Shown: piece by piece, positions 31,890 to 50,588 of the stretch
How the letters are laid out: the number at the start of each line of letters is the position of its first letter
Position numbering within the stretch: position 1 is the stretch's first letter
Notes under the pieces: model-generated
Databases searched by the model: none
What the model saw: the letters and a program-made list of their open reading frames with translations, nothing else
What the model was told of the DNA's origin: nothing
Source: a virus
IMG/VR virus record: IMGVR_UViG_3300034095_001503
Coordinates: 1-64,000 of that record
DNA: 64,000 bases
Strand: one strand, 5' to 3'
Translations under genes and position numbers: made by a program

Positions 31890-33161
31890 ATGAAAAAATT
31901 AAAAGTACTAGTAGTACCTAGCGATAGAACTGGAGTTTCTTATTTCCGCTCAACTAACCCACATATTGCGTTAGAAAGTAATTACCCAAATGAATTCCAT
32001 GTTGATGTGGATTATGAACCTCAAATCGATAACGATGAATGGTTAAAACAATATGATATAATTCATTATCACAGAACTTTGGGACATTATGACCAAATGC
32101 CAGCTTTGTTGGAAAGAACAAAACGTTTAGGTATTGTAACTATCATGGATTTAGACGATTATTGGTCACCTGGACCACATCACCCAGCTTATTACCTTAT
32201 TAAATCAGCAAATATTGATAAAATGATTTTAGACAATATTAAAGTTGCTGAGAATGTAATAACAACAACAACATTGTTTGCTGATGAAATTAAAAAATAC
32301 AATAAAAATGTATTTGTTTTAGCTAACGCTATTAACCCAACTGAAAAACAATTCACACCTAAATTAGAACCATCAAATGGTCGTGTTAGAATTGGGTGGT
32401 TAGGTGGTTCATCTCACTTAAAAGATTTAGAAATACTTAAAGGTATTGTCGGTAAACTTAAAGTTGATGGATTATTAGATAAAGTACAATTTGTGTTGTG
32501 TGGTTTTGATACTAGAGGAACGCATACTGAAATCGACCAAACTACTGGACAACAAAATACTAGACAAATTAGACCAATTGAAAGTGTTTGGTATGAATAC
32601 GAAAAAATCTTTACTGATGATTATAAAACTGTTAGTCAAGGATATAAAGAATTTTTGATGAAATTTATTCCAAATTCAGAATTTGAAAATGTTGCAAACG
32701 AACCTTATAGACGTGTTTGGACTAAACCAATTTCGACATATGCCTCTAACTATAATTTATTTGATATTTCATTGGCACCAATTGAAGATAATATCTTCAA
32801 CAAAGTGAAAAGTCAATTAAAAGTTATTGAAGCTGGTTTCCACCATAAAGCAATTATTGCTCAAGATTTTGGACCTTACAAAATAGATATAAAAAATGCT
32901 ATACAATATGGCGGTGGTTTTGATTTAGAAGCTAACGGTATTTTGATAGACCCAAAGAAAAACCATAAAGATTGGTATTCTGCAATTAAAAAATTAATTC
33001 AAAATCCAGAAGTGGTTGCTGCATTGCAAGAAAATTTATACAACACTGTAAAAGATACTTACTCAATGGATAAAGTAACTGAAGAAAGAAGAGAATTGTA
33101 TTTAGGTTTGTATGAAAAAAACAAAATAACTAAAAATAAAAAAGAAACTGAAAACGCATAA
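31890..33161 (+). CDS. GT-B (GT4-type) glycosyltransferase
   Basis: The 423-residue two-domain enzyme has an N-terminal Rossmann fold, KKLKVLVVPSDRTGVSYFRS, followed by MDLDDYWSPGPHHPAYY and TTTTLFADEIKKYNKN. Its C-terminal half has RIGWLGGSSHLKD and the EX7E-like acidic region SLAPIEDNIFNKVKSQLKVIEAG that binds the nucleotide-sugar. The length is typical for the family. It lies behind a terminator, and a TATATTTG box about 30 nt upstream suggests host-type transcription. It is the first gene of a long sugar locus. Donor, acceptor and product cannot be read from sequence. Confidence 0.85.
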   Translation: MKKLKVLVVPSDRTGVSYFRSTNPHIALESNYPNEFHVDVDYEPQIDNDEWLKQYDIIHYHRTLGHYDQMPALLERTKRLGIVTIMDLDDYWSPGPHHPAYYLIKSANIDKMILDNIKVAENVITTTTLFADEIKKYNKNVFVLANAINPTEKQFTPKLEPSNGRVRIGWLGGSSHLKDLEILKGIVGKLKVDGLLDKVQFVLCGFDTRGTHTEIDQTTGQQNTRQIRPIESVWYEYEKIFTDDYKTVSQGYKEFLMKFIPNSEFENVANEPYRRVWTKPISTYASNYNLFDISLAPIEDNIFNKVKSQLKVIEAGFHHKAIIAQDFGPYKIDIKNAIQYGGGFDLEANGILIDPKKNHKDWYSAIKKLIQNPEVVAALQENLYNTVKDTYSMDKVTEERRELYLGLYEKNKITKNKKETENA

Positions 33162-33163
33162 TT

Positions 33164-33661
33164 ATGGCTAGAAAAGATGATTTAAAACTTTTATTTAACT
33201 TCATGATTGAGTTATTAAAAGACGAACAAGAAACAAATACTGTTAAAGAACAGACAATTAAGTATGAGGTACCTAATATTACACCAAAAGAGTTTAACGA
33301 AATCACCAAACAAGTTTTAACTGAAAACCAAAATGATTCAGCTAAACATATTTTGGAAGTGATGAAGCGTGCTGAACTTATGGATAAAATGAGAAGTACT
33401 GTAATCGCTAGACCTAAAGTTGTTCCACCATCATTAAGAGATGATGATGAAATAGCTCAAAATGATAGAGAGGCAATCAATACCCACAAAGCAGAAAAGA
33501 AAAATAAAAACATTAAAAATATTTTATCTGATGCTAAAGGGTTTATGGATGAACTAGAATTTAAAAAACCATTGGTTCCAAGTGTATCACTTCATGAATT
33601 AGCTGAAAAGGAATTAGCTAAAAGTATTATGAGGTCTGAAGAAGAAAAAATTGAAAAATAA
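33164..33661 (+). CDS. Conserved hypothetical helical protein
   Basis: The 165-residue soluble, charged, mostly helical protein starts DDLKLLFNFMIELLKDEQET. It has no cysteine cluster, membrane segment or nucleotide-binding motif. It follows the first glycosyltransferase by 2 bases and precedes a host-type promoter (33672-33702), so it ends a short unit. Its motif-poor sequence (NITPKEFNEITKQVLTENQN, then GFMDELEFKKPLVPSVSLHE) offers nothing to name. It may be an adapter or regulator of the sugar genes or of an early phage process. Unknown function. Confidence 0.5.
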   Translation: MARKDDLKLLFNFMIELLKDEQETNTVKEQTIKYEVPNITPKEFNEITKQVLTENQNDSAKHILEVMKRAELMDKMRSTVIARPKVVPPSLRDDDEIAQNDREAINTHKAEKKNKNIKNILSDAKGFMDELEFKKPLVPSVSLHELAEKELAKSIMRSEEEKIEK

Positions 33662-33671
33662 AATATAAAGG

Positions 33672-33702
33672 TTGATTTATTGGTTTTTTGTTAGTATATT
33701 TG
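33672..33702 (+). promoter_or_regulatory. Bacteroidota-type host promoter
   Basis: TTG (33672-33674), 20 bases, TATATTTG (33695-33702), 30 nt before the HD-like gene at 33733. It presumably drives HD-like, dUTPase and downstream sugar genes. Confidence 0.7.
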
Positions 33703-33732
33703 TTTAAATAATATTAATAAAAAACCAATAAA

Positions 33733-34296
33733 ATGCCTTTAGAACAAGAAAAAATCGTTGCAAATGCTAAAAAGTATTTCGACACAGCTACAAAGATTGG
33801 CTTTATGAATGAAGACCTAATGAAATTCTTAGGTGAATCTTTTATAAAAGCTCCAGCATCAACAATGACAGACTTACATAACGCTTTTGAAGGTGGACTT
33901 ATTGACCATTTATTAAGAGTTGGTTCATACGCTGTTAAATTCAACAACGCATTACCAGAAGAAGAAAGAGTTGACCAAAATTCTTTACTTAAAGTTTGTT
34001 TACTACACCAAATTGGTAAAGCAAATCTTTACAAGCCATGTGAATCAGAATGGCACAGAAAAAATCAAGGGAAAATGTATGAATTCAATGATTCTATTTC
34101 ATCTATGAGAGTAGGTGAGAGAAGTCTTCATTATGCTATGTCAAATGGTGTCTCTTTTACTGAAGAAGAATTCAGTGCTATTTTGAATTTTGAAAAAAAT
34201 GATGATAAAATGGCTGAGTATCATAACTCAACTGTTGGTGATTTATTAAAAACAGCTGCATTATTTGCTGTTAAAAATGAAAAAATAAAAAAATAA
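33733..34296 (+). CDS. HD-domain-like protein with altered metal-binding residue
   Basis: The 187-residue helical protein has the layout of small phage HD-domain proteins: an early His in HNAFEGGLIDHLLRVGSYA and a second block, LLKVCLLHQIGKANLYKPCE. In canonical HD hydrolases the second block reads HD; here it is HQ, so a metal ligand is missing. Either the fold is kept as a binding protein or another acidic residue substitutes. The gene starts the unit under a host-type promoter, immediately before dUTPase, so a nucleotide-related role is plausible. The family match is by pattern only. Confidence 0.6.
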   Translation: MPLEQEKIVANAKKYFDTATKIGFMNEDLMKFLGESFIKAPASTMTDLHNAFEGGLIDHLLRVGSYAVKFNNALPEEERVDQNSLLKVCLLHQIGKANLYKPCESEWHRKNQGKMYEFNDSISSMRVGERSLHYAMSNGVSFTEEEFSAILNFEKNDDKMAEYHNSTVGDLLKTAALFAVKNEKIKK

Positions 34297-34297
34297 T

Positions 34298-34882
34298 ATG
34301 GATTTATTGGAAAAAATGCGAGAGAAAGTTTTTCTACTTGCTGACCCAGATAGCGGTTACACCCAAAAAGATTTTGACGCTGAGTTTAACCCATCAACAT
34401 TGGGTATGGAACCTAATTTTGATGAATATAAAATCAATTTCAAATTTAAAAATGAATCTAACAACCCAGACCCAGAATATGCAACTGGTGGTTCTTCTGG
34501 ATTTGATTTAAGAGCTAATTTAACAGAGGTTATAAAATTATCACCACAAGGTGGTTTTGCCATTATACCAACTGGGTTATATTTTGAGATTCCAGAGAAT
34601 TTTGAAATACAAGTTAGAAGTAGAAGTGGGTTGGCTGCAAAAAACCAAGTAGCAGTTTTAAACTCACCTGGTACCGTGGATGCTGATTATCGTGGTGAAG
34701 TTAAAGTTATTTTAATCAACCATGGTTTAAATGAGTTCACAATTAACCATGGTGATAGAATTGCACAAGCGGTAGTTGCTGCTGTAACTGCTAAAAACTT
34801 TATTAAACTAACTAAAGTAAATAATATTAACGAAGACACTGAACGTGGTTCTGGTGGTTTCGGTTCAACTGGAATAAAATGA
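34298..34882 (+). CDS. dut: dUTP diphosphatase
   Basis: Hydrolyses dUTP to dUMP and pyrophosphate, keeping uracil out of phage DNA and feeding dTMP synthesis. All five trimeric dUTPase motifs are present: I GGSSGFDLRA, II VRSRSGLAAKN, III NSPGTVDADYRGEVKV, IV INHGDRIAQAVV and V RGSGGFGSTG near the C-terminus. At 194 residues it is longer than the usual 140-160, because of an N-terminal extension of about 60 residues (DLLEKMREKVFLLADPDSGY) of unknown role. It follows the HD-like gene by one base and overlaps the next by 4, so the three are co-transcribed from the 33672-33702 promoter. Confidence 0.95.
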   Translation: MDLLEKMREKVFLLADPDSGYTQKDFDAEFNPSTLGMEPNFDEYKINFKFKNESNNPDPEYATGGSSGFDLRANLTEVIKLSPQGGFAIIPTGLYFEIPENFEIQVRSRSGLAAKNQVAVLNSPGTVDADYRGEVKVILINHGLNEFTINHGDRIAQAVVAAVTAKNFIKLTKVNNINEDTERGSGGFGSTGIK

Positions 34883-35139
34883 TTAGAACTGAATTTATAG
34901 AAATATTAAAAGAACATGCTGAAACAGCTGGTGTATTTGGTAACAGATTTGTTTGTCGTTCCGATGACAAAAATTATTGGACTTATCATATACCAGCAGT
35001 GGATACACCAGAACCTTCAATAGAATTATTTACTGAAGGTTTTGTTCTATATTCACCAAATATAGGTTTTGGATTGAATGCTATTGAAAAAATAAGTTAT
35101 GAAGATTTCATAACAAAATATAATTTAACTAGAAAATGA
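34879..35139 (+). CDS. Small hypothetical protein
   Basis: An 86-residue protein: MIRTEFIEILKEHAETAGVF, an aromatic-rich middle (DDKNYWTYHIP) and a C-terminal helix (ISYEDFITKYNLTRK). It has no motif, membrane segment or signal. It overlaps dUTPase by 4 bases (ATGA) and overlaps the next glycosyltransferase by 4, so it belongs to one translationally coupled transcript that links nucleotide metabolism to the sugar locus. No family recognised. It may be an adapter; nothing in the sequence decides this. Confidence 0.5.
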   Translation: MIRTEFIEILKEHAETAGVFGNRFVCRSDDKNYWTYHIPAVDTPEPSIELFTEGFVLYSPNIGFGLNAIEKISYEDFITKYNLTRK

Positions 35140-36323
35140 TAACAGTTGTATATTGTACAAGAGAATCAAACCCAGAACACACAGAACATTTAATCAAGAC
35201 TTCTGGTTTACATAAACACTTAGAAGTTATTGAAATAATCAATAACGGTGAATCGTTAACAAAAGCTTACAATCGTGGGTTAAAAATGGCTACAAATAAA
35301 ATTGTAGTTTTTTGTCACGATGATTTAACTATTGAAACTAAACAATGGGGTACCAAACTTATCAAATTATTTGAAAGAAATAAAGAATATGGTATTATCG
35401 GTATTGCTGGTACAAAGTTTATGGCGGAAAATGGTCAATGGTGGACTAACCCTAGAAAAATGTACGGTAGAGTTCAACATACACACGAAGGTAAAACTTG
35501 GTTATCATCATATTCAGATGATTTAGGTCAATCACTAGAAGAAACTGTTATTGTTGATGGTTTATTTTTTGCTGTGAATAAAGATGTTGTTAAAAAAGAA
35601 TTTAACGAGGATTTTGAAGGTTTCCATTTCTATGATGTTAGTTATTGTTTTGACAACTTTTTAGAAGGTGTTAAGGTTGGTGTGACAACTGTAGTTAGAG
35701 TTAACCACCAATCTATTGGTATGGTAAACGAACAATGGGAAGAAAATAGAAAACAATTTGCTGAAACTTATAAAGATAAGTTACCAATCAACATTAAAAA
35801 AACACTAAGGAAAGGTGAAAAATTAAAAATTATGGTTACTTCATTATCTTTTGATGATGCAAACCCTAAAAGTAAATTAATTTTAGAATTTGCTACTAAG
35901 CTAAAAAATGAAAAACATGATGTAACTATCTGTTCCAACATCAATGGTAAAATACCTTCTTTAGCTAAAAAAATAGGAATTAGTTTAGCACCAATACAAC
36001 AACCACCAGGTTTTGCTTTAGGTGATGGTAAATGGGTTTTAAACACAAATGAGGGTCCAGTTCCATCAACACCTAATACATTGTATAAAGTTAAAGATTA
36101 TAAGTTTGATATTATCCATACTTTTGATGATGAACTTATTAGTCATTTAGAAAAATTGTATGGTGGTTCAAATATCATCAACACAAACTTTCCAAATGGT
36201 TTATTTATTAATACTGAAAAAAATCCTTTGGTTAAAACAACGATAAGTTTAACAAATGATTTAACTGAATTTGTTAAATTAGATATCGATAACGTTATAC
36301 AAGAATATATTGACGTAATATAA
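35136..36323 (+). CDS. Two-domain glycosyltransferase (GT2-type plus GT-B-like half)
   Basis: Residues 1-220 follow the Glyco_tranf_2_5-like pattern: ITVVYCTRESNPEHTEHLIK, NNGESLTKAYNRGLKMA, VVFCHDDLTIETKQWG with the acidic pair, then GIIGIAGTKFMAENGQWW. From about residue 228 a second domain starts, LKIMVTSLSFDDANPKSKLI, which resembles the N-terminal Rossmann half of GT-B enzymes and has its own acidic IIHTFDDELI. No complete GT-B C-terminal half follows. It may be a fusion with a truncated second domain, or a chaperone-like partner of the next gene, whose sequence could supply the missing half. Substrate unknown. Confidence 0.75.
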   Translation: MITVVYCTRESNPEHTEHLIKTSGLHKHLEVIEIINNGESLTKAYNRGLKMATNKIVVFCHDDLTIETKQWGTKLIKLFERNKEYGIIGIAGTKFMAENGQWWTNPRKMYGRVQHTHEGKTWLSSYSDDLGQSLEETVIVDGLFFAVNKDVVKKEFNEDFEGFHFYDVSYCFDNFLEGVKVGVTTVVRVNHQSIGMVNEQWEENRKQFAETYKDKLPINIKKTLRKGEKLKIMVTSLSFDDANPKSKLILEFATKLKNEKHDVTICSNINGKIPSLAKKIGISLAPIQQPPGFALGDGKWVLNTNEGPVPSTPNTLYKVKDYKFDIIHTFDDELISHLEKLYGGSNIINTNFPNGLFINTEKNPLVKTTISLTNDLTEFVKLDIDNVIQEYIDVI

Positions 36324-37108
36324 TGATTAAAATAGTTTCTGGATATTCTGAAAAAGGTGGTTCAACATCTGCATTTATTGATTTAACGAATGAGTTAAAT
36401 CGAAATGGTATTGATACAACTTTTTATGGACCACATGCATGGCATTTAGATAAATGTAAATCTGGTATTTTAGATAGCAGTTTTGTTGTTGACCCTACTG
36501 ATACATTAATTTGTCATTTCCTACAATTACCAAGCAGACCAAATGCTAAAAAAGTTATTTTAAGCTGCCATGAAAAGTGGTGGTTTAAAGTAGGTGAGAT
36601 AAAAGAATATTGGGATACTGCTATCTTCTTACATAATGAACATAGAGAGTATCATAATGCTTATGAAGGTGATTTTACTATCATACCAAATTTGAAACCA
36701 GATTTAAAACCAATCGACAAAGAAAATTTAGATTTGGTTGCTGGTATTATTGGAAGTATTGAAGATAGAAAACAAACCCACACCTCAATACAAAGAGCTT
36801 TGGCTGATGGTTGTGAAAAAATAAAGATATTCGGTCATATTGGTGAAGAAGGTTATTATGAAAAATATGTAAAACACTTACTTAACGATAATATTGAAAT
36901 TGTTGGTTTCAGCACCAATAAACAAGAAATGTATGATTCTATTGGACGAGTATATCATTCATCAAAAGGTGAAGTTGCTTGTTTGGTTAAAGACGAATGT
37001 TGGTTAACCAACACTAAATTCTTTGGAAATGAAGAAACTGAAAATGAAGTATCTAAATTATCAAATATTGAGATTATAGATGCATGGAAAAAAATATTAG
37101 GGATATGA
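36323..37108 (+). CDS. GT-B-like glycosyltransferase
   Basis: The 261-residue protein begins MIKIVSGYSEKGGSTSAFID, an N-terminal Rossmann fold in which GGST fits the sugar acceptor loop, followed by CHFLQLPSRPNAKKVILSCH and a C-terminal half AGIIGSIEDRKQTHTSIQRA that resembles GT4 nucleotide-binding domains. It is shorter than typical GT-B enzymes (350-400), so one half may be reduced. Its ATG touches the stop of the gene before (TAATG) and its end overlaps the next start, so translation is coupled. It probably acts with the neighbouring transferases on one glycan. Confidence 0.6.
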   Translation: MIKIVSGYSEKGGSTSAFIDLTNELNRNGIDTTFYGPHAWHLDKCKSGILDSSFVVDPTDTLICHFLQLPSRPNAKKVILSCHEKWWFKVGEIKEYWDTAIFLHNEHREYHNAYEGDFTIIPNLKPDLKPIDKENLDLVAGIIGSIEDRKQTHTSIQRALADGCEKIKIFGHIGEEGYYEKYVKHLLNDNIEIVGFSTNKQEMYDSIGRVYHSSKGEVACLVKDECWLTNTKFFGNEETENEVSKLSNIEIIDAWKKILGI

Positions 37109-37821
37109 TAATACACGCACACATACTAGCATTCAATGAAGAAAAAATTCTTCCATTTACGTTAGATTATTATTCTAATTTATGCGAAAAAATATTTATA
37201 TATGATAACATGTCAACTGATGGTTCAGATGAAATTTATACAAGATATCCAAAAGTTACTGTTATTAAATGGGATAGTAACAATGAAATAAATGAAATGA
37301 ATTATGTCAACATAAAATCAAATGGTTATAAACAATATAGTAGAGATGCTGATTGGGTTATCGTTTGTGATTGTGATGAAATTTTGTATCATTCAAAATT
37401 GTTAGATAAATTAACTTATTACAAAGAAAACGGTATAACTGTACCTAAAGTAAATGGTCATGATATGGTGAGTGAAACGTTTCCAGAATATGATGGTGGT
37501 TTGATTACTACCAAAGTTAAAACTGGTTCTGAAGTTTACGCACCTTTTTGTAAAAACATAATATTCAATCCTAAACTAAATGTTGAATTTGGTATTGGTG
37601 GACATTCTTTCAAATGTGACAACGCTACTTTTTCTGTTAGCCCAGAATTAAAATTGTTACATTACAAATTTTTAGGTGTTGAATATGTTGAAACCATTTA
37701 TAAAGCTAGAATGGAACGATTAAGTGAATTTAACAAAGAACATAAATTTGGTGAGCATTATTTTAATGTTCCTTATGATTATATGGAAAAATTATTAAGT
37801 GAAAATATACAAATAGTATGA
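37105..37821 (+). CDS. GT-A glycosyltransferase (Glyco_tranf_2_4-like)
   Basis: From the start at 37105 the protein reads MIIHAHILAFNEEKILPFTL, then IFIYDNMSTDGSDEI and the DCDEI metal-binding motif (VIVCDCDEILYHSK), the pattern of PF13704-type GT-A enzymes that use Mn2+ and a nucleotide-sugar. Length is 238 residues. The longer frame beginning at 37084 lacks an obvious advantage, and the ATGA overlap with the preceding gene favours 37105. A 4-base overlap with the next gene continues the coupled cluster. Substrate unknown; family assignment is good. Confidence 0.8.
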   Translation: MIIHAHILAFNEEKILPFTLDYYSNLCEKIFIYDNMSTDGSDEIYTRYPKVTVIKWDSNNEINEMNYVNIKSNGYKQYSRDADWVIVCDCDEILYHSKLLDKLTYYKENGITVPKVNGHDMVSETFPEYDGGLITTKVKTGSEVYAPFCKNIIFNPKLNVEFGIGGHSFKCDNATFSVSPELKLLHYKFLGVEYVETIYKARMERLSEFNKEHKFGEHYFNVPYDYMEKLLSENIQIV

Positions 37822-38639
37822 GAAAAATATTAATATCAGATTTTACTATAAAAGAAGCACCACATGGTGGTTCAGAATGGGTTAACCAAGTTTTGATTGA
37901 TAAATTTAATTTAGAATTTAAATACTCACAACAAGTTACTTCTTTTGAACCAGATGTTTTATATATCATTTCAAATGTATCTTTAATGAGACCAGATTTG
38001 GTTAGTCAAATTTCTAGTCTTAATTACATCATAATTGAGAATGATTATAAAATATGTCATTCTAGACACCCATGGCGTTGGCCAGAATCAATCATCCCAT
38101 TGAATGAACGAATCAACTATGATATGTATGCTAACGCTAAAGCAGTTTTTGTTCAAACCAACGACCACCAAAGAGTTTATAAGATAAATGATGTCAAAGC
38201 TAATTTTATCAACTTACACTCATCTATATGGGCTGAAAGTGATTTAGAGTTATTAGAGAATACTCTTAAACAAACTACAGAGAAAAATGGTAAACACGCT
38301 ATTTACGCTACTGATAACTGGATTAAAAATTCTCAAGGTTCTGTAAAATATTGTGAAGATAATAATTTAGAATTTGATTTGATTTATAACCAAGAAAGAA
38401 GAGAAGATTTTATAAGTAAATTGGCTCAATGTTCTAATTTGGTGTTTTTTCCTTTGGCTAGAGAAACTTTTTGTAGATTAGTTGTTGAAGCTAAATGTTT
38501 AGGTTTAGATGTAACCACAACTAAAAATTACGGTGCTTCTTTGGAAGGATATTTTGAAATGTCTGGTCAAGAACTGATTGATTTTTTAAGAATGCAAACA
38601 GAAGATAATTTAAATAAAATAAACAAATACCTTAATTAA
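37818..38639 (+). CDS. GT-B-like glycosyltransferase
   Basis: The 273-residue protein has a Rossmann-like start (RKILISDFTIKEAPHGGSEW), where the APHGGSE loop resembles the acceptor-side glycine loop of GT4 enzymes, then VLYIISNVSLMRPDLVSQIS. The C-terminal half has SNLVFFPLARETFCRLVVEA, the E-x-F-x-R-L-V-x-E-A pattern of the nucleotide-sugar binding site. Length is short for GT-B. It follows the previous gene with an ATGA overlap and runs into the 38639 gene with TAATG. Probably part of the same glycan assembly line. Confidence 0.7.
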   Translation: MRKILISDFTIKEAPHGGSEWVNQVLIDKFNLEFKYSQQVTSFEPDVLYIISNVSLMRPDLVSQISSLNYIIIENDYKICHSRHPWRWPESIIPLNERINYDMYANAKAVFVQTNDHQRVYKINDVKANFINLHSSIWAESDLELLENTLKQTTEKNGKHAIYATDNWIKNSQGSVKYCEDNNLEFDLIYNQERREDFISKLAQCSNLVFFPLARETFCRLVVEAKCLGLDVTTTKNYGASLEGYFEMSGQELIDFLRMQTEDNLNKINKYLN

Positions 38640-39667
38640 TGGAAAATATCTTTATAAATATAAAAAAATGGGGTTACAGTAAATTAGCTATGCTTTCGTT
38701 AGCAATGTCCAACGTTGAAAAAAACTCTTTAGGACAATCCGCTGAACCTTTATCAACTGACACTGCTAAATTCCAAAGACATACACAAGGTCAATTAGCT
38801 GATTCACTTATAAATGGTGAAGTAACACAAGAAGTTATTGACATGCGATGGAGAACATATAAAATCATTCGAGAAACTGAAGGTGTTACTGCTGAAATAG
38901 TTGGGTATGATGAGAATGGTATGCCAATTGTTAAAACTAGAAAAAGAAACAAAAAAGCTGGTCTTAAAAAAGTTAAATTAGATGAATTTGATTCTTATCC
39001 TTTGGAAATGATAATCGATAATTCAGAAATAGTTTTAAGTGGTAATCAAGCTATGGATAATGATAACATTTCTATCTTTGATGAAGTAATTATAAACCAA
39101 ACTACTGGACCAATAGGTGTGATTGGACCAATAGGTCCAGATGGTCAAAAAGATGTTGATGGAGAACCAAGTAAAATTGAATGGTCAGCTTCACATGGTT
39201 CAATTAGTGGTACTGAATATTTTGCAACCAACAAATCTGAACGTCCAATCATATTAACTAGACTTAACCCACCTAAATTCAAGTTAGAGAACTTTACAAA
39301 AAAACTAAATATTAGAACTATAAATAAAACTGAAAAGTTATTAGAGTTTTATGTTAGTAAGTATCCAGATGAATACAATAGAACAAGTCGTTTATTTATT
39401 AGCGATATTAAAAAAGCTATTTTAGAACCAGAGAAATCAACAATACTAGAATTTAGTAGTGTTAATTTTATCACTTACAAATGTATGGGTGTTGATGACT
39501 TTTTAGAGTTTGAATATGAGATTATTTCTTTTGATAAAATAATTGAATACAATGGTTTTTATGTTGTTAAATTTATTGCAAAAGTTAATGTTAACGGTGT
39601 GGATATGTTAGAAAAACATAGAGTTGTTGAATTAGATAAAAAATACGAAAATAAACAAAAGAAATAA
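38639..39667 (+). CDS. Conserved phage protein with collagen-like insert
   Basis: A 342-residue protein that differs from its transferase neighbours. The N-terminal 110 residues (WGYSKLAMLSLAMSNVEKNS; EVIDMRWRTYKIIRETEG; TRKRNKKAGLKKVKLDEFDS) are charged and helical and look like a conserved phage family I cannot name. A short Gly-x-y stretch, TGPIGVIGPIGPDGQKDVDG, sits near residues 157-175, followed by a beta-rich C-terminal half (LEFSSVNFITYKCMGVDDFL). Collagen-like segments often mark virion or fibre proteins. Its place in the sugar operon suggests either a co-transcribed virion protein or a glycosylation target. Unknown function. Confidence 0.5.
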   Translation: MENIFINIKKWGYSKLAMLSLAMSNVEKNSLGQSAEPLSTDTAKFQRHTQGQLADSLINGEVTQEVIDMRWRTYKIIRETEGVTAEIVGYDENGMPIVKTRKRNKKAGLKKVKLDEFDSYPLEMIIDNSEIVLSGNQAMDNDNISIFDEVIINQTTGPIGVIGPIGPDGQKDVDGEPSKIEWSASHGSISGTEYFATNKSERPIILTRLNPPKFKLENFTKKLNIRTINKTEKLLEFYVSKYPDEYNRTSRLFISDIKKAILEPEKSTILEFSSVNFITYKCMGVDDFLEFEYEIISFDKIIEYNGFYVVKFIAKVNVNGVDMLEKHRVVELDKKYENKQKK

Positions 39668-43252: not shown

Positions 43253-44620
43253 ATGAAATTAATAATATTTGATTTAGATGGTGTGTTGGTTGAGGCCAAG
43301 GAAATTCACTATACAGCATTAAACGAAGCACTAGCTGCAATCGGTAACCAATATATTATATCATGGTCTGAACATTTAAGTAAATATGATGGTCTTAAAA
43401 CCAATCAAAAATTAGAAATGTTAACAATTGAAAAAGGTTTACCTTCAGACCAACATAAAAACGTCTGGAATAAAAAACAAGAAATAACATTAGAAAAATT
43501 ACGCTCGTTGGAACCTTCGTTAATTTTACAAGAAACTATGTCAAAATTAACGCAAGATGGTTTCAAAATAGCTTGTTGTTCAAACTCAATTCGTAAAACA
43601 GTATTGACTGTTTTATCTAAATTAGGTATTATTGAATACTTTGATTTGGTCATTTCAAATGAAGATGTTAAAAATAGTAAACCACACCCAGAAATGTATT
43701 GGAAAGCAATTTCTTTTATTGGTGTTTTACCAGAAGAAACATTAATTGTTGAAGATTCTCCTTATGGTTTATTAGCTGCTGCTAGGAGTAAATCACATGT
43801 ATTAAGAGTTATAAGTCCAAATGAAGTTAATTATTCAAATATAAATAATAAAATAACTGAAATAAAAACAAATAAACATATGAAAACACCTAAATGGAGT
43901 GATAAAAAATTAAATGTATTAATACCTATGGCTGGAGCTGGCTCTAGATTTGAGCAAGCTGGATATACATTTCCAAAACCTTTGATTGATGTAAATGGTG
44001 AACCTATGATAAAAGTTGTGAGTGAAAACTTAAATCTAGACGCTAATTTTATCTATATTGTACAAAAAAAACATAGAGAAAAATATAATTTAGATACACT
44101 TTTAAATCTTATTTCACCTAACTGTACTATTGTTGAGGTTGATGGAGTAACTGAAGGTGCTGCATGTACAACATTATTAGCTAAAGAACTAATCGATAAC
44201 GAACAACCATTAATTATGGCTAATTCAGACCAATTTATTGAATGGGATTCAAATGAGTTTATGTATAAAATGAACGAAACTGAGGCTGATGGTGGTATTG
44301 TTACCTTCACATCTACACACCCTAAATGGTCATTCGCTAAAATAGATGATAATGGATTTGTAACTGAAGTTGCTGAGAAAAACCCAATATCTGATATTGC
44401 AACTGTTGGTGTTTATTTTTGGAAACATGGTTCAGATTACGTAAAATACGCTGAACAAATGATAAGTAAAAATATTAGAGTTAATAACGAATTTTACGTT
44501 TGTCCAGTGTTTAATGAAGCAGTCTTAGATAATAAGAAAATAAGAACATTCAATATAGAAAAAATGTGGGGTATTGGTACTCCAGAAGATTTGAACTATT
44601 TTTTAGAAAAATACAAATAA
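43253..44620 (+). CDS. HAD phosphatase/phosphomutase fused to a nucleotidyltransferase
   Basis: The 455-residue fusion has residues 1-205 as a HAD enzyme of the beta-phosphoglucomutase/phosphatase type: motif I IFDLDGVLVEAKEIHYTALN, motif II CCSNSIRKTV, motif IV IVEDSPYGLLAAARS. Residues 215-455 are a nucleotidyltransferase: LNVLIPMAGAGSRFEQAGYT, FPKPLIDVNGEP, then IMANSDQFIEW as the metal site and a C-terminal VGVYFWKHG. The linker MKTPKWSDKK separates the two. Combined, they could convert a sugar phosphate and activate it as an NDP-sugar for the transferases around it; that is inference. Such a fusion in one phage polypeptide is unusual. Confidence 0.85.
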   Translation: MKLIIFDLDGVLVEAKEIHYTALNEALAAIGNQYIISWSEHLSKYDGLKTNQKLEMLTIEKGLPSDQHKNVWNKKQEITLEKLRSLEPSLILQETMSKLTQDGFKIACCSNSIRKTVLTVLSKLGIIEYFDLVISNEDVKNSKPHPEMYWKAISFIGVLPEETLIVEDSPYGLLAAARSKSHVLRVISPNEVNYSNINNKITEIKTNKHMKTPKWSDKKLNVLIPMAGAGSRFEQAGYTFPKPLIDVNGEPMIKVVSENLNLDANFIYIVQKKHREKYNLDTLLNLISPNCTIVEVDGVTEGAACTTLLAKELIDNEQPLIMANSDQFIEWDSNEFMYKMNETEADGGIVTFTSTHPKWSFAKIDDNGFVTEVAEKNPISDIATVGVYFWKHGSDYVKYAEQMISKNIRVNNEFYVCPVFNEAVLDNKKIRTFNIEKMWGIGTPEDLNYFLEKYK

Positions 44621-44622
44621 AA

Positions 44623-45252
44623 ATGATACATTTAATTGGTAATAGTCATGTTAATACCTTTTCAAATGATGATAAAATAAATATGTCATTTGAAAATGAA
44701 TTTTTTAAATCACACCACATTGGCCCAGTGATTGCTTATAACTTTTATGAACATCATATGAGTTCAGTTAATAAGATTATTATTGATAATAATATTCAAA
44801 AAAGTGATTATATATCTTTAATCATTGGAGAAGTTGATTGTAGGGTACACTTACCATTACAAGCCGATATTCAAAAAATAAATGATGAAGAAATAGTTGC
44901 TGAATGTGTTAATAGATTATTTAGATGTTATGATAACTTATTAGAAAGAGATTATAAAATAATTGTTTATTCCACTCACCCAACAACTACTGAAAATCAC
45001 GATATGAGTAGAGAAGATAGACCGATATATGGTGATGTAGAAAGAAGAAATAATATTTCTTTGATATGGAATAAAAAATTAGGTGATTTATGTAAATCTA
45101 AAAACATTAAATTTGTAAATTTTTATGATTTATTAGTAAATGAAAATAATATAACAAAAATGGAATATTTTTTAGACTACTGCCACCTTAATAGCAGTAT
45201 GTGTTATCCATTTATATTAGAAAAAACAAAAAATGAAATTAATATCGCATAG
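44623..45252 (+). CDS. SGNH/GDSL-like hydrolase
   Basis: The 209-residue protein begins MIHLIGNSHVNTFSNDDKIN, where GNSH stands for the GDS block I of SGNH esterases. It continues with LIIGEVDCRVHLPLQ as a block III/II analogue and MEYFLDYCHLNSSMCYPF with the D-x-x-H catalytic pair of block V. Members act on O-acetyl or acyl groups on polysaccharides. The start at 44623 leaves two bases after the previous stop; the longer frame from 44566 would overlap the nucleotidyltransferase and is unlikely. It overlaps the next gene by 20 bases. Assignment by motif layout. Confidence 0.6.
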   Translation: MIHLIGNSHVNTFSNDDKINMSFENEFFKSHHIGPVIAYNFYEHHMSSVNKIIIDNNIQKSDYISLIIGEVDCRVHLPLQADIQKINDEEIVAECVNRLFRCYDNLLERDYKIIVYSTHPTTTENHDMSREDRPIYGDVERRNNISLIWNKKLGDLCKSKNIKFVNFYDLLVNENNITKMEYFLDYCHLNSSMCYPFILEKTKNEINIA

Positions 45253-45670
45253 AGGTAATATAAATGGTAAGTTAGAATCATGGGAGAATGAACCAACCTA
45301 TATTGATTTAGCTATATCAAAAGGTTATGATGTAGAAATAGATGTTTGGTATAAAGATAATATGTTATGGTTAGGTCATGATAAACCAGATTATGGAATT
45401 GATTTCAGATTTATTAGAGATAGGATATCTAAACTTTGGGTTCACTGTAAAAATATTGAAGCTATTCTTTTTTTAAAAGAATGTGGTTATGATGTTAATT
45501 ATTTTTGGCATGAAAATGATGTAATAACTTTAACAAGTCTTAATTATATTTGGGCTTTTCCAGGTAAACAACCAATTAAAAATAGTATAGCGGTCATGCC
45601 AGAAATTTTCAATGATGATGTTTCAAGTGCAATTGGTGTTTGTAGCGATTTTATTGAAAATTATAAATAA
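45233..45670 (+). CDS. Glycerophosphodiester phosphodiesterase-like protein
   Basis: The 145-residue protein has the GDPD/PI-PLC-like pattern: MKLISHRGNINGKLESWENE at the start with the catalytic His6, then YIDLAISKGYDVEIDVWYKD with acidic ligands of the metal site and MLWLGHDKPDYG with the second His. The family cleaves glycerophosphodiesters and related phosphodiester-linked sugars; full enzymes are usually 230-300 residues, so this one is compact. It overlaps the SGNH-like gene by 20 bases. The pair may remodel a phosphodiester-decorated glycan. The fold is convincing; activity is not shown. Confidence 0.65.
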   Translation: MKLISHRGNINGKLESWENEPTYIDLAISKGYDVEIDVWYKDNMLWLGHDKPDYGIDFRFIRDRISKLWVHCKNIEAILFLKECGYDVNYFWHENDVITLTSLNYIWAFPGKQPIKNSIAVMPEIFNDDVSSAIGVCSDFIENYK

Positions 45671-45712: not shown

Positions 45713-46714
45713 ATGATTCTATTAACTTATGGTACTCGACCAGAATACATCAAAATTAAACCGTTGATAAAAGAATTTAAAAATTCTAATTTACCATTCA
45801 AAATACTCTTTACTGGTCAACATAAAGATATAGCAAATGGTGAATATGATTTTAAATTAGAAATGACTGATTTATCTAATAATAGATTAGATTCAGTTAT
45901 TGCTAATCTAATGACTTTATCTGATGATATTTTTGACGAGATTACACACGTACTAGTTCAAGGTGATACAACATCTGTTGTTGGTTTATCTTTGGCTGCT
46001 TTACATAGAAAGATAAAACTAATACATTTAGAAGCTGGTTTAAGGACATATGACACTGAAAACCCATTCCCAGAAGAAAACAATAGACGCATAGTATCAA
46101 CTATCGCTACAATACATCTATGCCCTACTGAATTAAATGCAAATAATTTATATAAAGAAAATGTGAGTGAAAATGTTTTTATTGTTGGTAATACTGTATT
46201 GGATAATCTTATTGATTACAAAGAAAAGTGTGAATATACAAATAAAGTCTTAGTTACGATGCATAGACGTGAAAACCATGAAAATATTAATGAATGGTTC
46301 ACTGAAATAAATGAGTTAGCCAAAAAACATAATGAATTAGAATTTATTCTACCTTTACACCCAAATCCAAATGTTCAAAAACATAAATCAATATTAACAC
46401 ATGTTAATATTGTTGAACCTTTGAAACATGAAGATTTATTAAATCTATTGGTTAAAACAAGGTTGGTTATAACTGATAGTGGTGGTATTCAAGAAGAGTG
46501 TTCATTCTTCAATAAGAAATGTTTAGTATGTCGAAAAGTAACCGAAAGACCAGAATCAGTAAATTTGACTAGCTTTTTAATCGATGAACCAAAAGATTTA
46601 GCGTCAATCTTTAATTGTCATATCAATAATTATAATGTAAATATTGAGTCACCATATGGTGATGGTAAATCGTCAATTAAAATTTGTGATATTTTGAATA
46701 AGTTAATAAAATAA
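45713..46714 (+). CDS. wecB: UDP-N-acetylglucosamine 2-epimerase
   Basis: Interconverts UDP-GlcNAc and UDP-ManNAc, feeding cell-wall and capsule polymers. The 333-residue sequence carries the family signatures: LTYGTRPEYIKIKPLIKEF, HVLVQGDTTSVVGLSLAALH, HLEAGLRTYDTENPFPEENN, VTMHRRENHENINEW, LPLHPNPNVQKH and TDSGGIQEECSFF. It is somewhat shorter than cellular WecB (about 370), mostly at the C-terminus. It starts after a 42-base gap and is followed by a late-type motif and PhoH. As a complete donor-forming enzyme it shows the locus can make an activated sugar. High confidence in family. Confidence 0.92.
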   Translation: MILLTYGTRPEYIKIKPLIKEFKNSNLPFKILFTGQHKDIANGEYDFKLEMTDLSNNRLDSVIANLMTLSDDIFDEITHVLVQGDTTSVVGLSLAALHRKIKLIHLEAGLRTYDTENPFPEENNRRIVSTIATIHLCPTELNANNLYKENVSENVFIVGNTVLDNLIDYKEKCEYTNKVLVTMHRRENHENINEWFTEINELAKKHNELEFILPLHPNPNVQKHKSILTHVNIVEPLKHEDLLNLLVKTRLVITDSGGIQEECSFFNKKCLVCRKVTERPESVNLTSFLIDEPKDLASIFNCHINNYNVNIESPYGDGKSSIKICDILNKLIK

Positions 46715-46715
46715 G

Positions 46716-46723
46716 ATATTTAT
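46716..46723 (+). promoter_or_regulatory. Late promoter motif
   Basis: GATATTTATAATAAAA, a full consensus match, 13 nt before the PhoH ATG at 46737. Confidence 0.55.
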
Positions 46724-46736
46724 AATAAAAGTTTGT

Positions 46737-47597
46737 ATGATAAAAAAACCAGCTACAACAGCTAGAAAACCTAGAGTTAAAAAAACAACAACCGAGGTAG
46801 TTGTTGAGAAAAAAGTTTCATTTGATTTATTATCGTTAATTAAAATAGATATCAAACATAAAAACGAGATTCAAAAGAAATTAACGCAATCAATTAAGAA
46901 TGGTGATGTTACTATATGTACTGGTCCAGCTGGTACTGGTAAAACTCTTTTGAGTGTTGCTGAAGCGTTGTTACTTCTTAAAACCCATAGCGACATATAC
47001 CATGAGATTAAATTGGTTAAATCAATTATAAACTTAGAAGGTGAAGATTTAGGTACATTACCTGGTGATGAAAAAGACAAACTTAAATTTATTATGATGT
47101 CTTTCTTCGATGCGTTTTATAAACTTATTGGTGAAGAACTTACAAACAGACTTTTAGAAGCTGGATACATCAAGATGGAAGTATTTGGTGCAATACGTGG
47201 TAGGTCTATTTCTAACGCAATTATATTGTTTGATGAATTCCAAAATGTATCTGATAGAAACGGTAAAACTCTTTTAACAAGATTTTCTGAAAACACAAAA
47301 GTTATTGCTTTAGGTGATAGTAATCAAGTAGATTTAAAAAACCCAGATTTGAGTTGTTTGAAAGAATTGGTTAGAATGACAAAACTATATCCAGAACAAG
47401 GTGTTAGTGTTGTTGAATTTACCGATGAAGAAGTTGTTAGACATAGACTTACTAGATACTTTATAAACATATTTGAACACAAAGATTATAAAAAGAAAGA
47501 ACCTAGAGTTATTCCAGTAATCGAAAGACCAAAAACTCAAATTATAAAAAAAGAAAGTTTTTTTAAAAAACTTTTATCATTTTTTACAAAAAAATAA
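46737..47597 (+). CDS. phoH: PhoH-like ATPase
   Basis: The 286-residue protein has Walker A TGPAGTGKTLLSVAEALLL (about residues 61-79) and Walker B AIILFDEFQNVS, with the PhoH-family block EVFGAIRGRSISNAI between them. The basic N-terminus (KKPATTARKPRVKKTTTEVV) and a short basic tail (KKESFFKKLLSFFTKK) flank the domain. PhoH-like proteins are frequent in marine and gut phages and have ATPase/helicase-like folds, with a proposed link to phosphate or RNA metabolism. A late-type motif lies 13 nt before the ATG (46716-46723). The family is certain, the role is not. Confidence 0.88.
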   Translation: MIKKPATTARKPRVKKTTTEVVVEKKVSFDLLSLIKIDIKHKNEIQKKLTQSIKNGDVTICTGPAGTGKTLLSVAEALLLLKTHSDIYHEIKLVKSIINLEGEDLGTLPGDEKDKLKFIMMSFFDAFYKLIGEELTNRLLEAGYIKMEVFGAIRGRSISNAIILFDEFQNVSDRNGKTLLTRFSENTKVIALGDSNQVDLKNPDLSCLKELVRMTKLYPEQGVSVVEFTDEEVVRHRLTRYFINIFEHKDYKKKEPRVIPVIERPKTQIIKKESFFKKLLSFFTKK

Positions 47598-47640
47598 TTT
47601 TTTACTTTACTTATCTATAGTTATTCCTTAGATTTATTTT

Positions 47641-48246
47641 ATGAAGATAGGGATAACTATAAACGAGGTTTTAAGAGATTTTATTGGTCAACTAAATTAC
47701 ACGTATTCAAAATATATCAACGAAACTGATATTACAGAAGAAAATGTAACTAGTTTCAATTTAATTGATTATTTTAAGTTTGACGACATCAATCAACTTA
47801 ATAGGTTTCTATACTTAGAAGCACCTCTAGAAATTTTCGGCCATGCCGACCAGATGTCAGATGGTTTAATTAACCATTTTAATACTTTTTTAATGGACAC
47901 CAAAGATGAAGGTGAACATGAAATCATTTTAATTAGTCGAGAAATCGAAAAAAGTATTCCTTCAACACTTTTCTTTTTATCAAAAACTGGATGTCGTGCA
48001 GCAAATATTAAATTTGTTACTTCATATTCAGAAAAATGGGATGATGTTGATGTATTGATTACAGCAAACCCACAAACACTTGAAAATAAACCAAACGGTA
48101 AAATTAGTGTAAAAGTTAACGCTTCTTACAATAAAAATACGCCATCGGATTATGAGATAGACTCCATATTAGACTTCATCAACAATGAAGAACTTAGAGA
48201 AAAAATCTTAAATACAAAAATAACAACTTACGAAGAAATTAATTAA
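47641..48246 (+). CDS. Degenerate HAD-fold nucleotidase-like protein
   Basis: The 201-residue product follows the layout of phage 5'(3')-nucleotidases: an N-terminal strand-loop (MKIGITINEVLRDFIGQLNY), a middle LISREIEKSIPSTLFFLSKT resembling the motif II/III region, and FVTSYSEKWDDVDVLITANP as the motif IV position, followed by a short ISVKVNASYNKN strand. In active members motif I reads DxDG and motif IV ends in DD; here these positions read TINE and TAN, so the catalytic acids are gone. It is probably a non-catalytic binding protein. It sits next to an unassigned gene with 1 base between. Confidence 0.6.
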   Translation: MKIGITINEVLRDFIGQLNYTYSKYINETDITEENVTSFNLIDYFKFDDINQLNRFLYLEAPLEIFGHADQMSDGLINHFNTFLMDTKDEGEHEIILISREIEKSIPSTLFFLSKTGCRAANIKFVTSYSEKWDDVDVLITANPQTLENKPNGKISVKVNASYNKNTPSDYEIDSILDFINNEELREKILNTKITTYEEIN

Positions 48247-48247
48247 T

Positions 48248-48607: not shown

Positions 48608-48631
48608 CACCCATATAAAAAAAAAATAGAA

Positions 48632-49780
48632 ATGGAAGAAAAACAAAAACAAATCGCAGAACAAATTACTCAAGTAAATGAAGTTCTAGCAAAATTGGAA
48701 TCAAAAGATTTCAACCTATACTTTTTCACGTTAGATACAAAAGGTAACCCAACAGCTGGTATTGCAAATATTTACGAGCATGTTAAAATTTTAAATAGTT
48801 TAGGTTACAAAGCAAGTATTCTTCATGAAAAAAATGATTATAAATTAAGAGGTGACCAAGAAGGAAACGGTATTGCTGATTGGTTAGGTGAAGAATATGC
48901 TTCATTACCACACACTTCAATCGAAGGACAACAATTAAACGTTAGCCCAGCTGATTTTATCATTATCCCAGAAATTTTTGCTAACATTATGGACCAAGTA
49001 AAAGGTTTCCCATGCAAAAAAATAGTTTTCTCACAAAGTTATGATTACTTATTAGAATTGTTACAAATAGGAAAAAGATGGAATGTTGATTATGGATTTA
49101 CAGATGTTATTACAACAACTGAAAGACAATCAAATTATTTGAAAACATTATTCCCATCAATAAAAACTCACATTGTACCAGTTGCAATCGCACCTTATTT
49201 TAAAGATAGTGATAAACCAAAAATTCCAGTTGTTTCTATATTGACTAGAAATCAAGGTGATGCTGCTAAAATTGCAAAATCATTCTATTTACAATACCCA
49301 GTTTACAAATGGATTACCTTCAAAGAATTGAGAGGTTTACCTAAAGAACAATTTGCTAGCGAATTAGCTAAATCTTGTTTAGCTGTTTGGGTTGATGACC
49401 AATCATCTTTCGGTACATTCCCATTAGAAGCTATTGAATCTAACACGCCAGTAATTGGTAAAATACCTAACATGATTCCAGAATGGATGGAAAGTGTTGA
49501 TGAACAAGGTAATGTTACTATCAAACAAAATGGTATTTGGACAAATACTACATTGAATATTCCAGAATTAATCGCAACTTATTTAAAAGTTTGGTTAGAA
49601 GATTCTGTACCATCTGATTTAATCGAAGGTATCAATGAATCTAAAGGATTATACACTTCAGAAAACCAAATTTCTGTTGCAACTAACGTATATTCAACTT
49701 TAGTTGAAAATAGACTTTCTGAATTAAAAATAACTTTAGAAGCATTAGAAGATGCTCAAAAAGAAACAACTAACGCTTAA
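48632..49780 (+). CDS. GT-B glycosyltransferase
   Basis: The 382-residue two-domain enzyme has an N-terminal helix (EEKQKQIAEQITQVNEVLAK), then NLYFFTLDTKGNPTAGIANI as the first Rossmann core with the acceptor glycine loop, and a C-terminal nucleotide-binding half with VVSILTRNQGDAAKIAKSFY, CLAVWVDDQSSFGTFPLEAI (the E-x7-E-like GTFPLEAIE) and VIGKIPNMIPEWM. Length is normal for GT-B. It begins the last sugar block before the sigma factor. Donor and acceptor unknown. Confidence 0.8.
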   Translation: MEEKQKQIAEQITQVNEVLAKLESKDFNLYFFTLDTKGNPTAGIANIYEHVKILNSLGYKASILHEKNDYKLRGDQEGNGIADWLGEEYASLPHTSIEGQQLNVSPADFIIIPEIFANIMDQVKGFPCKKIVFSQSYDYLLELLQIGKRWNVDYGFTDVITTTERQSNYLKTLFPSIKTHIVPVAIAPYFKDSDKPKIPVVSILTRNQGDAAKIAKSFYLQYPVYKWITFKELRGLPKEQFASELAKSCLAVWVDDQSSFGTFPLEAIESNTPVIGKIPNMIPEWMESVDEQGNVTIKQNGIWTNTTLNIPELIATYLKVWLEDSVPSDLIEGINESKGLYTSENQISVATNVYSTLVENRLSELKITLEALEDAQKETTNA

Positions 49781-49793
49781 TAAAAATACGAAT

Positions 49794-50588
49794 ATGAAAA
49801 ATACAAATATTTCAGTTATCCTTCCAGTTCATGAATTGAACGAAGAAACAACAATTTTATTTACAAACGCAGTACAAAGCGTTATCGACCAGTCAATTAG
49901 ACCAGAACAATTAATTATCGTAGTACCAAAAGGTAGTGCAGTAGTTAATATTGTTAAAACTGTTGATTATGGTGATTATAAAGATTCAGTAGTAATTGCT
50001 GAAAATGATGGTGAAACTGATTTTGCATCACAAATTAATTATGGTGTATCAGTTTCAACGACAGAATGGTTTTCAATCTTAGAATTAGATGATGAATATG
50101 CTAAAATATGGTTTAAAAATGTTGTAGAATATAGAGAAAAACATACAAATGTAGATATCTTTATGCCTATAATCATTGATGTAGATAATTCTGGTCAATT
50201 TATTGGATTTACTAACGAAGCTGTTTGGGCTCAAAGTTTCTCTGATGAATTAGGTGTATTGGATAACAATGCATTGTTGGCTTATCAAAATTTCAACATC
50301 GATGGTATAGTAATAAGAAAATCAATCTATAATGATTTTGGTGGGTTTAAACCTAGTATCAAATTAACTTTTATTTATGAATTCTTATTACGTATGACGT
50401 TTAAAGATGCTAGAGTTTTTGTTATACCTAGATTTGGTTATAAACACGTAAATCAAAGACCAGGCTCGTTATTCTCTTCTTATAAAGAAACATTAGACCC
50501 AGCAGAAGCTAGATGGTGGTTAGCAACAGCTAAAAAAGAATATTATTTTCCAACAGATAGAAAAATAACATACGCTGTAGAAAAATAA
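49794..50588 (+). CDS. GT-A (GT2-type) glycosyltransferase
   Basis: The 264-residue protein from 49794 begins MKNTNISVILPVHELNEETT, then VQSVIDQSIRPEQLIIVVPK, FSILELDDEYAKIWFKNVVE as the LDDE acidic motif, and C-terminal NIDGIVIRKSIYNDFGGFKP with GYKHVNQRPGSLF. That is the layout of GT2 enzymes with a single domain. The upstream frame start at 49752 overlaps the preceding gene and is less likely. The next gene (sigma factor) starts three bases after its stop. It closes the sugar region. Confidence 0.8.
   Translation: MKNTNISVILPVHELNEETTILFTNAVQSVIDQSIRPEQLIIVVPKGSAVVNIVKTVDYGDYKDSVVIAENDGETDFASQINYGVSVSTTEWFSILELDDEYAKIWFKNVVEYREKHTNVDIFMPIIIDVDNSGQFIGFTNEAVWAQSFSDELGVLDNNALLAYQNFNIDGIVIRKSIYNDFGGFKPSIKLTFIYEFLLRMTFKDARVFVIPRFGYKHVNQRPGSLFSSYKETLDPAEARWWLATAKKEYYFPTDRKITYAVEK

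What the first reader, a model, noticed from the sequence alone, without database searches (positions are those of the whole stretch)
31890..50588. Roughly 19 kb phage-encoded glycan-synthesis locus
About ten glycosyltransferases of several folds (GT-A, GT-B, GT-D, WavE-like), a UDP-GlcNAc 2-epimerase, a nucleotidyltransferase fusion, an O-methyltransferase, an SGNH esterase-like and a GDPD-like protein are packed in near-continuous, overlapping order; a DUF2827 enzyme at 18.5 kb may add to it. This is enough to build, activate, modify and trim a polymer or protein glycan. Possible uses are changing the host surface to exclude competitors, glycosylating the virion, or protecting phage DNA. I know of no characterised phage system of this breadth.
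Basis: partly seen in the sequence, partly recalled or inferred. Interest (0 to 1): 0.75.

Follow-up and report, generated by a model that had tools for sequence, protein, structure and literature searches.

The report
Jumbo phage's swappable sugar-coat gene block
A large, uncultured T4-like water phage carries a late-gene block of about sixteen sugar-handling enzymes, four of them fixed in its whole lineage and the rest an exchangeable cassette, which probably builds a variable sugar decoration for its own particles or for its host's surface; such clusters are known from marine cyanophages, but this fixed-frame-plus-cassette layout was not found in the papers I read.

Summary
Of 24 ORFs between 31890 and 50588, 16 are glycan-related; the other 8 (HD hydrolase, dUTPase, PhoH, NT5C-like, four unknowns) are ordinary phage genes. 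Eight glycosyltransferases (GTs) are supported, two are weak, one rests on context only; the SGNH call is weak, and the GDPD-like call rests on a confident structure model.

The main new result is the architecture. In up to 18 related viral contigs one late-gene frame recurs: GT(31890)-HD-dUTPase-GT2(35136) | cassette of 5-20 genes | PhoH-NT5C-GT(48632)-GT2(49752)-sigma. Four GTs are present in every frame that reaches them. The cassette is exchanged and modular: epimerase+39669+40387 co-occur, as do HAD-NTP+GDPD. A conserved divergent TATAAATA (T4-type late) element sits 46-47 nt before the operon. Most enzymes are under purifying selection. No initiating transferase or Wzx in 18 contigs, no multi-TM cassette protein. 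ThyA is an ordinary thymidylate synthase.

Best reading: a late, soluble oligosaccharide assembly line acting on a cytoplasmic acceptor, most likely virion protein (0.45); extension of host lipooligosaccharide is the strong rival (0.35). Phage 'LPS' clusters are already known (P-SSM2, pelagimyophages): new variant of a known kind.

The parts
28971..29002 (.). Divergent T4-type late-promoter-like element: TATAAATA on + at 28971-28978, on - at 28995-29002
   Evidence: Conserved 46-47 nt before the first + gene and 47-49 nt before the divergent tail-fibre gene in relatives; TATAAATA 30 vs 16.9 expected in window
31890..33161 (+). Core GT, GT-B-like (lineage-wide)
   Evidence: PHROG 7162 E 2e-39; homolog in 15 of the frame contigs at 51-83%; dN/dS 0.12
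33733..34296 (+). HD-type phosphohydrolase (frame gene, not glycan)
   Evidence: PHROG 28876; conserved in frame
34298..34882 (+). dUTPase (frame gene, not glycan)
   Evidence: Sequence motifs; conserved in frame
35136..36323 (+). Core GT2 (lineage-wide), left border of the cassette
   Evidence: PF13712 E 1e-37; 18 of 18 contigs
36323..37108 (+). Cassette gene, putative GT (context only)
   Evidence: No profile match; 29 viral relatives
37084..37821 (+). Cassette GT2
   Evidence: PF13704 E 2e-16; DCD motif
37818..38639 (+). Cassette putative GT-B
   Evidence: PF00534 E 0.02, weak
38639..39667 (+). Conserved protein of unknown function inside the block; possible acceptor or structural protein
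   Evidence: In 15 of 17 frames; AF2 pLDDT 61; Foldseek inconclusive
39669..40400 (+). Cassette GT2, ManNAc-type module
   Evidence: PF00535 E 4e-10; co-occurs with 45713 and 40387
40387..41106 (+). Cassette GT-D-like, same module
   Evidence: Invariant DGE; 4pfx GalT1 E 0.019
41107..41811 (+). Cassette GT, same module, fast evolving or replaced
   Evidence: TIGR04440 E 2e-4; dN/dS 0.58-0.67 at 34-39% identity
41811..42482 (+). Cassette WavE-like GT
   Evidence: PF07507 E 4e-7 over cut-off; TATAAATA 30 nt upstream
42507..43250 (+). Sugar O-methyltransferase, absent from the 18 relatives compared
   Evidence: TIGR04371 over cut-off
43253..44620 (+). HAD (beta-PGM-like) + sugar-phosphate nucleotidyltransferase fusion
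   Evidence: PF13419, PF00483; at least 597 viral stretches; Legionella and an archaeon
44566..45252 (+). SGNH-like putative esterase
   Evidence: PF13472 E 0.07 only; homologs at 26-33% in four relatives
45233..45670 (+). Minimal GDPD-like protein paired with HAD-NTP
   Evidence: HR/E-D/H residues invariant in 40; AF2 pLDDT 97.7; Foldseek GDPD; 62 of 80 HAD-NTP loci
45713..46714 (+). UDP-GlcNAc 2-epimerase
   Evidence: PF02350 E 3e-72; alignment; TATAAATA 51 nt upstream
46737..47597 (+). PhoH (frame gene, right border of the cassette)
   Evidence: PF02562 E 4e-48; 17 relatives
47641..48246 (+). NT5C-like deoxynucleotidase (frame gene, not glycan)
   Evidence: PF06941 E 0.04; frame
48632..49780 (+). 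Core GT-B (lineage-wide)
   Evidence: 8xsg E 2e-11; 135 viral stretches, best 80 at 68-100%; 16 contigs
49752..50588 (+). Core GT2 (lineage-wide)
   Evidence: PF00535 E 1e-7; 16 contigs
50592..51320 (+). Sigma-70-like factor, possibly gp55-like (late regulation)
   Evidence: PF04542 E 2e-4; frame gene

Best explanation
A late-expressed oligosaccharide assembly line in a large T4-like phage. Shown by sequence: a conserved late-gene frame with four lineage-core GTs surrounds an exchangeable cassette; in this phage the cassette holds a UDP-GlcNAc 2-epimerase with two or three co-inherited GTs, a HAD-nucleotidyltransferase plus GDPD-like pair, a sugar O-methyltransferase and more GTs. Inferred: the core GTs build a constant stem, the epimerase supplies UDP-ManNAc for its partner GTs, the HAD-NTP protein activates a further sugar phosphate or phospho-alcohol, and the methyltransferase caps the chain, so that each phage ends with its own outer glycan. 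Inferred and least certain: with no lipid-carrier initiation or Wzx flippase of its own and with late expression, the acceptor is a cytoplasmic one, most likely virion proteins (head, tail or fibres), giving particles a variable sugar coat.
For: Fixed frame with four core GTs and variable cassette; co-inherited modules; cassettes of relatives rich in GDP-mannose dehydratase, GT11, GT10, FkbM methyltransferase, DegT; purifying selection; conserved divergent TATAAATA element before the operon, shared with the tail-fibre gene, and a sigma-like gene in the frame; no PF02397 or PF01943 in 18 contigs up to 362 kb with controls ringing, and no multi-TM cassette protein; canonical thymidylate synthase. 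Precedents: chlorovirus-encoded glycan enzymes and a glycosylated major capsid protein (PMC4691112) and mycobacteriophage capsid/tail-tube glycans (Freeman 2023, as cited in PMC12619734).
Against: No glycan or glycosylated virion protein has been shown; no acceptor was identified (38639 is only a guess). Soluble GTs without a flippase could equally extend host lipooligosaccharide on the inner leaflet. The case for late timing rests mainly on one promoter-like element; over all genes the motif is only mildly enriched (26 sense vs 15 antisense near 758 starts). The contigs are incomplete.
Confidence: 0.45

Rival explanations
1. The enzymes extend or cap the host's lipooligosaccharide, LPS core or another lipid-linked glycan at the inner leaflet, using host flippases, so that the infected cell or its debris no longer binds competing or released phages.
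For: This is the published reading for P-SSM2 and pelagimyophages (PMC2984593, PMC7029224, PMC7824862). WavE-like and other LPS-type GT families occur here and in relatives. The HAD-NTP enzyme sits next to LicD in seven Legionella-type genomes and, together with GDPD, in a polysaccharide locus of a Poseidoniales archaeon.
Against: No Gtr-like membrane protein, initiating transferase or Wzx in the phages. A late-promoter-like start does not fit early exclusion. Core GTs are constant across the lineage, whereas host surface glycans vary.
Confidence: 0.35
2. The GTs glycosylate hypermodified bases of phage DNA, as in T4.
For: Phages are known to use GTs for this (Pyle 2024, as cited in PMC12619734).
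Against: The thymidylate synthase of the window's genome has canonical TS motifs (PFN, PPCH) and is not a dCMP hydroxymethylase. No TET/JBP match, though that control did not ring. Sugar O-methyltransferase, epimerase and exchangeable cassettes are not needed for DNA glucosylation.
Confidence: 0.05
3. The cassette is unselected cargo ('stuffer DNA') carried because headful packaging allows it.
For: This was raised for cyanophage LPS clusters (PMC3037559); 41107 and 41811 have dN/dS near 0.6-0.7.
Against: Low dN/dS in most genes, intact motifs, co-inherited modules, fixed position, and core GTs in every frame.
Confidence: 0.04

Closest known systems
LPS gene clusters of cyanophage P-SSM2 and S-SSM7 (T4-like)
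   Same: Many GTs and nucleotide-sugar enzymes in one run in a T4-like phage, one cluster near phoH (PMC3037559, PMC2984593). The P-SSM2 cluster at 193-205 kb also lacks multi-TM proteins.
   Different: Different gene set with no close homologs of this window's GTs. Here four GTs are fixed in a late frame with the cassette between GT2 and PhoH. Host group is probably different.
GT clusters of cyanophages S-CAM9 and S-PRM1
   Same: Carry the HAD-NTP fusion (58-59%) and the GDPD-like partner (42%) in a GT/epimerase cluster.
   Different: The remaining genes differ; no shared frame was seen.
Moraphages (jumbo aquatic phages, PMC12619734)
   Same: Large T4-related aquatic phages with four core GT orthogroups, dUTPase, PhoH and a sigma factor in the core.
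   Different: That paper does not describe the island or its cassettes, and asks for such islands to be examined. Membership could not be tested because its genomes are not held here.
Glycan-rich host-recognition cluster of pelagimyophages (PMC7029224)
   Same: Hypervariable region beside tail fibres with many GTs.
   Different: Dominated by GT8 and placed inside the tail-fibre module.
Chlorovirus PBCV-1 glycosylation machinery (PMC4691112)
   Same: Virus-encoded GTs and GDP-sugar enzymes, some conserved and some strain-specific, with a glycosylated capsid protein.
   Different: Eukaryotic virus; there the capsid glycan structure is known, here a glycan is only inferred.
LicC/LicD phosphocholine tailoring and PntC (PMC6697681)
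   Same: Cellular HAD-NTP homologs lie next to LicD.
   Different: The NTP domain profile matches RmlA, HddC and mannose-1-P guanylyltransferase, not LicC, and no LicD was found in the phage loci.

Membership tests
T4-like phage 'LPS' gene cluster (P-SSM2 type) | Run of several GTs plus nucleotide-sugar enzymes in a T4-like genome | tested here: met
T4-like phage 'LPS' gene cluster (P-SSM2 type) | Location near phoH (one of the known sites) | tested here: met
   PhoH directly follows the epimerase; P-SSM2 site per PMC3037559
T4-like phage 'LPS' gene cluster (P-SSM2 type) | Demonstrated change of host LPS | not testable with these tools
   Not shown in the papers read
Wzx/Wzy O-antigen or capsule locus | Initiating polyprenyl-phosphate sugar transferase (PF02397) | tested here: not met
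   0 of 18 contigs, control rings in 9 of 14
Wzx/Wzy O-antigen or capsule locus | Flippase (PF01943) or other multi-TM polymerase/transporter | tested here: not met
   0 of 18, control 13 of 14; no cassette protein with 2 or more predicted TM segments
Phage seroconversion GtrABC | Membrane GtrA/GtrB/Gtr proteins | tested here: not met
   No multi-TM protein in the block
Virus-encoded virion glycosylation | Soluble virus-encoded GTs and sugar-nucleotide enzymes | tested here: met
Virus-encoded virion glycosylation | Glycan on structural proteins | not testable with these tools
   Needs virion glycoproteomics
T4-type DNA glucosylation | dCMP or dUMP hydroxymethylase in place of or beside TS | tested here: not met
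   Only PF00303 protein of the window's genome fragment is a canonical TS; fragment only
TET-type base hypermodification | Tet_JBP dioxygenase | tested here: inconclusive
   0 of 18, but the control did not ring
LicC/LicD pathway | LicC-like cytidylyltransferase domain | tested here: not met
   No LicC among 29 PDB matches
LicC/LicD pathway | LicD transferase next to the nucleotidyltransferase | tested here: not met
   Met in Legionella genomes, absent in the phage loci
GDPD phosphodiesterase | GDPD barrel with HR, E-x-D, H catalytic residues | tested here: met
   Residues invariant in 40 sequences; Foldseek GDPD prob 0.99, E 0.005; shortened barrel, no Pfam hit
Moraphage lineage | Four core GTs, dUTPase, PhoH and sigma factor in a jumbo T4-related aquatic phage | tested here: inconclusive
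   All present in the frame; no tree against those genomes could be made

The most novel reading that the evidence does not exclude
These jumbo phages have a serotype-like system: a constant glycan stem made by four core GTs and a swappable outer-glycan cassette decorate the virion itself, so that related phages differ in particle 'serotype' as bacteria differ in O antigen, perhaps to evade binding, capture or grazing, or to tune adsorption.
Probability: 0.33. Interest if true: 0.8.

Novelty: new variant of a known kind. Interest (0 to 1): 0.5.

Why it matters
Phage 'LPS clusters' have been known since P-SSM2, but whether they work and on what is open; one paper even asks whether they are stuffer DNA (PMC3037559). 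Here comparison of a whole lineage shows selection, co-inherited modules, a constant core of GTs and a late-promoter-like start. That argues against stuffer DNA and turns the open question into a direct test: are the virions glycosylated, or is the host envelope changed late in infection? The abundant HAD-NTP plus GDPD-like pair (at least 597 viral stretches matched for HAD-NTP) is also present in cultured cyanophages, so the biochemistry can be studied with isolates.

Tried and rejected
Single-sequence and profile searches for 36323 and 31890 against PDB gave nothing useful. The 45233 protein found no PDB sequence match; only the fold comparison worked. The 38639 model was too uncertain for a fold call. 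The idea that HAD-NTP is a LicC-type cytidylyltransferase, suggested by LicD neighbours in Legionella, was not supported by the NTP-domain profile. The collection of named phages held no relative of 48632 or 38639. The Lokiarchaeota hit L096 looks like a mis-binned phage contig and was not used as a cellular homolog. DUF2827 was considered and set apart. TATAAATA as a general late-promoter marker was weak over all genes, so only the conserved divergent site is used. Host assignment was not achieved: the nearest named phages by MCP and terminase infect Flavobacterium and Microcystis at only about 29-41% identity.
Full report
What is there. The window is bases 1-64000 of a 77,985-base viral contig, T4-like: its MCP matches the T4 MCP family and is nearest, at about 38-41%, to Flavobacterium phage immuto and Microcystis phage Mel-JY01; the terminase gives the same neighbours at about 30%. 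Between 31890 and 50588 there are 24 same-strand ORFs. Sixteen are glycan-related by family or context, eight are not. Eight GTs have profile support, two are weak and one has none. The UDP-GlcNAc 2-epimerase, the sugar O-methyltransferase and the HAD-nucleotidyltransferase fusion are well supported. The GDPD-like protein has HR, E-x-D and H invariant in 40 relatives, a confident model and GDPD enzymes as its best fold matches, with a shortened barrel. The SGNH call is weak.

Frame and cassette. Reading 30-40-kb stretches from 15 related viral contigs plus three closer relatives shows one recurring order: late genes, GT(31890), HD, dUTPase, GT2(35136), then a variable block, then PhoH, NT5C-like, 48248, GT(48632), GT2(49752), sigma-like, 51373, 51768, hub, 54842. 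The two GTs on each side are present wherever the contig reaches them (two pairs of these contigs are near-identical). G022 shares only cassette genes and GT2(35136), not the frame. The variable block spans 4-15 kb and 5-20 genes. In 148 cassette proteins of 12 relatives the commonest families include GT2 (17), NAD-dependent epimerase/dehydratase (10), FkbM methyltransferase (10), GDP-mannose dehydratase (9), GT11 (9), DegT aminotransferase (4) and GT10 (4).

Modules. The epimerase, 39669 and 40387 occur in exactly the same six frame contigs, and the epimerase, 39669 and 41107 in exactly the same eleven of 80 HAD-NTP loci, with 40387 in these and one more. HAD-NTP and GDPD-like share the same seven frame contigs; GDPD-like is found in 62 of 80 HAD-NTP loci and 30 of 39 well-flanked ones. 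These counts are not corrected for relatedness. Cultured cyanophages S-CAM9 and S-PRM1 carry the pair in a GT cluster, with the GDPD gene not named as such. In cells, HAD-NTP lies next to LicD in seven Legionella-type genomes and next to GDPD-like in a Poseidoniales polysaccharide locus. The NTP domain itself resembles sugar-1-phosphate nucleotidyltransferases, so its product is left open.

Selection. Compared with the two closest relatives, dN/dS is 0.06-0.30 for the glycan genes except 41107 and 41811 (0.58-0.73 at 32-40% identity, which look replaced rather than diverged); replication and structural genes give 0.08-0.25. dS is near 1, so values are approximate.

Timing. TATAAATA is enriched in the window (30 vs 16.9 +/- 4.4). 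A divergent pair of these boxes lies between the tail-fibre gene and the first gene of the + block, and a box recurs 46-47 nt upstream of that first gene in the window and ten relatives (nine independent after collapsing two near-identical pairs), with diverged surroundings. The + block that starts there runs, same-strand, through the whole glycan locus into the sigma-like and hub genes. This is inference for late expression; the motif is only mildly enriched before genes in general.

What it lacks. No initiating sugar-phosphate transferase and no Wzx in 18 contigs up to 362 kb, with working controls; no cassette protein with two or more predicted membrane segments in 12 relatives, none in the window's own block, and none in the P-SSM2 cluster. 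This excludes a self-contained Wzx/Wzy system and makes Gtr-type seroconversion unlikely, but not extension of host lipooligosaccharide by soluble GTs. The thymidylate synthase is canonical, against T4-type DNA glucosylation.

Function. I favour a late oligosaccharide assembly line for virion proteins (0.45) over host-surface extension (0.35). Shown: gene content, frame, modules, selection, promoter-like element, missing membrane steps. Inferred: stem-plus-crown logic, ManNAc use, capping by methylation, acceptor.

Known or new. Phage LPS-type clusters are known (PMC2984593, PMC3037559, PMC7029224, PMC7824862), and four core GT orthogroups are reported for moraphages (PMC12619734), which this lineage resembles. 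In the papers read here I did not find the fixed frame with an exchangeable cassette or the HAD-NTP/GDPD pair described. Verdict: new variant of a known kind, interest 0.5.

Noticed in passing
window 16844-19660 (+): Insert beside tail-fibre genes with a DUF2827 protein (PF10933, 322 bits), a DnaJ-domain protein (17887) and a 3-TM protein (17488); absent from the two closest relatives.
   Followed up: partly
window 16808-16826: A second divergent TATAAATA pair, between the tail-fibre gene and the DUF2827 insert.
   Followed up: no
window 59736-61595 (-): Major capsid protein of 619 aa whose T4-like part starts only near residue 337; the long N-terminal part is unusual.
   Followed up: no
G000 75898-77394 (L085 11898-13394, -): Thymidylate synthase of 498 aa, far longer than the 266-position Pfam model, with apparent internal insertions.
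   Followed up: partly
L097-L101, L105, L106: Operon-like pair LicD + HAD-NTP in seven Legionella-type genomes; substrate unknown.
   Followed up: partly
L103 9995-12184: HAD-NTP directly followed by GDPD-like and a cupin in a polysaccharide locus of a Poseidoniales archaeon.
   Followed up: partly
L096: Contig filed under a Lokiarchaeota MAG looks like a phage contig with HAD-NTP and GDPD-like.
   Followed up: no
window 38639-39667 (+): Protein conserved in 15 of 17 frames and always inside the glycan block, with a collagen-like GPIG stretch only in this phage; function unknown.
   Followed up: partly
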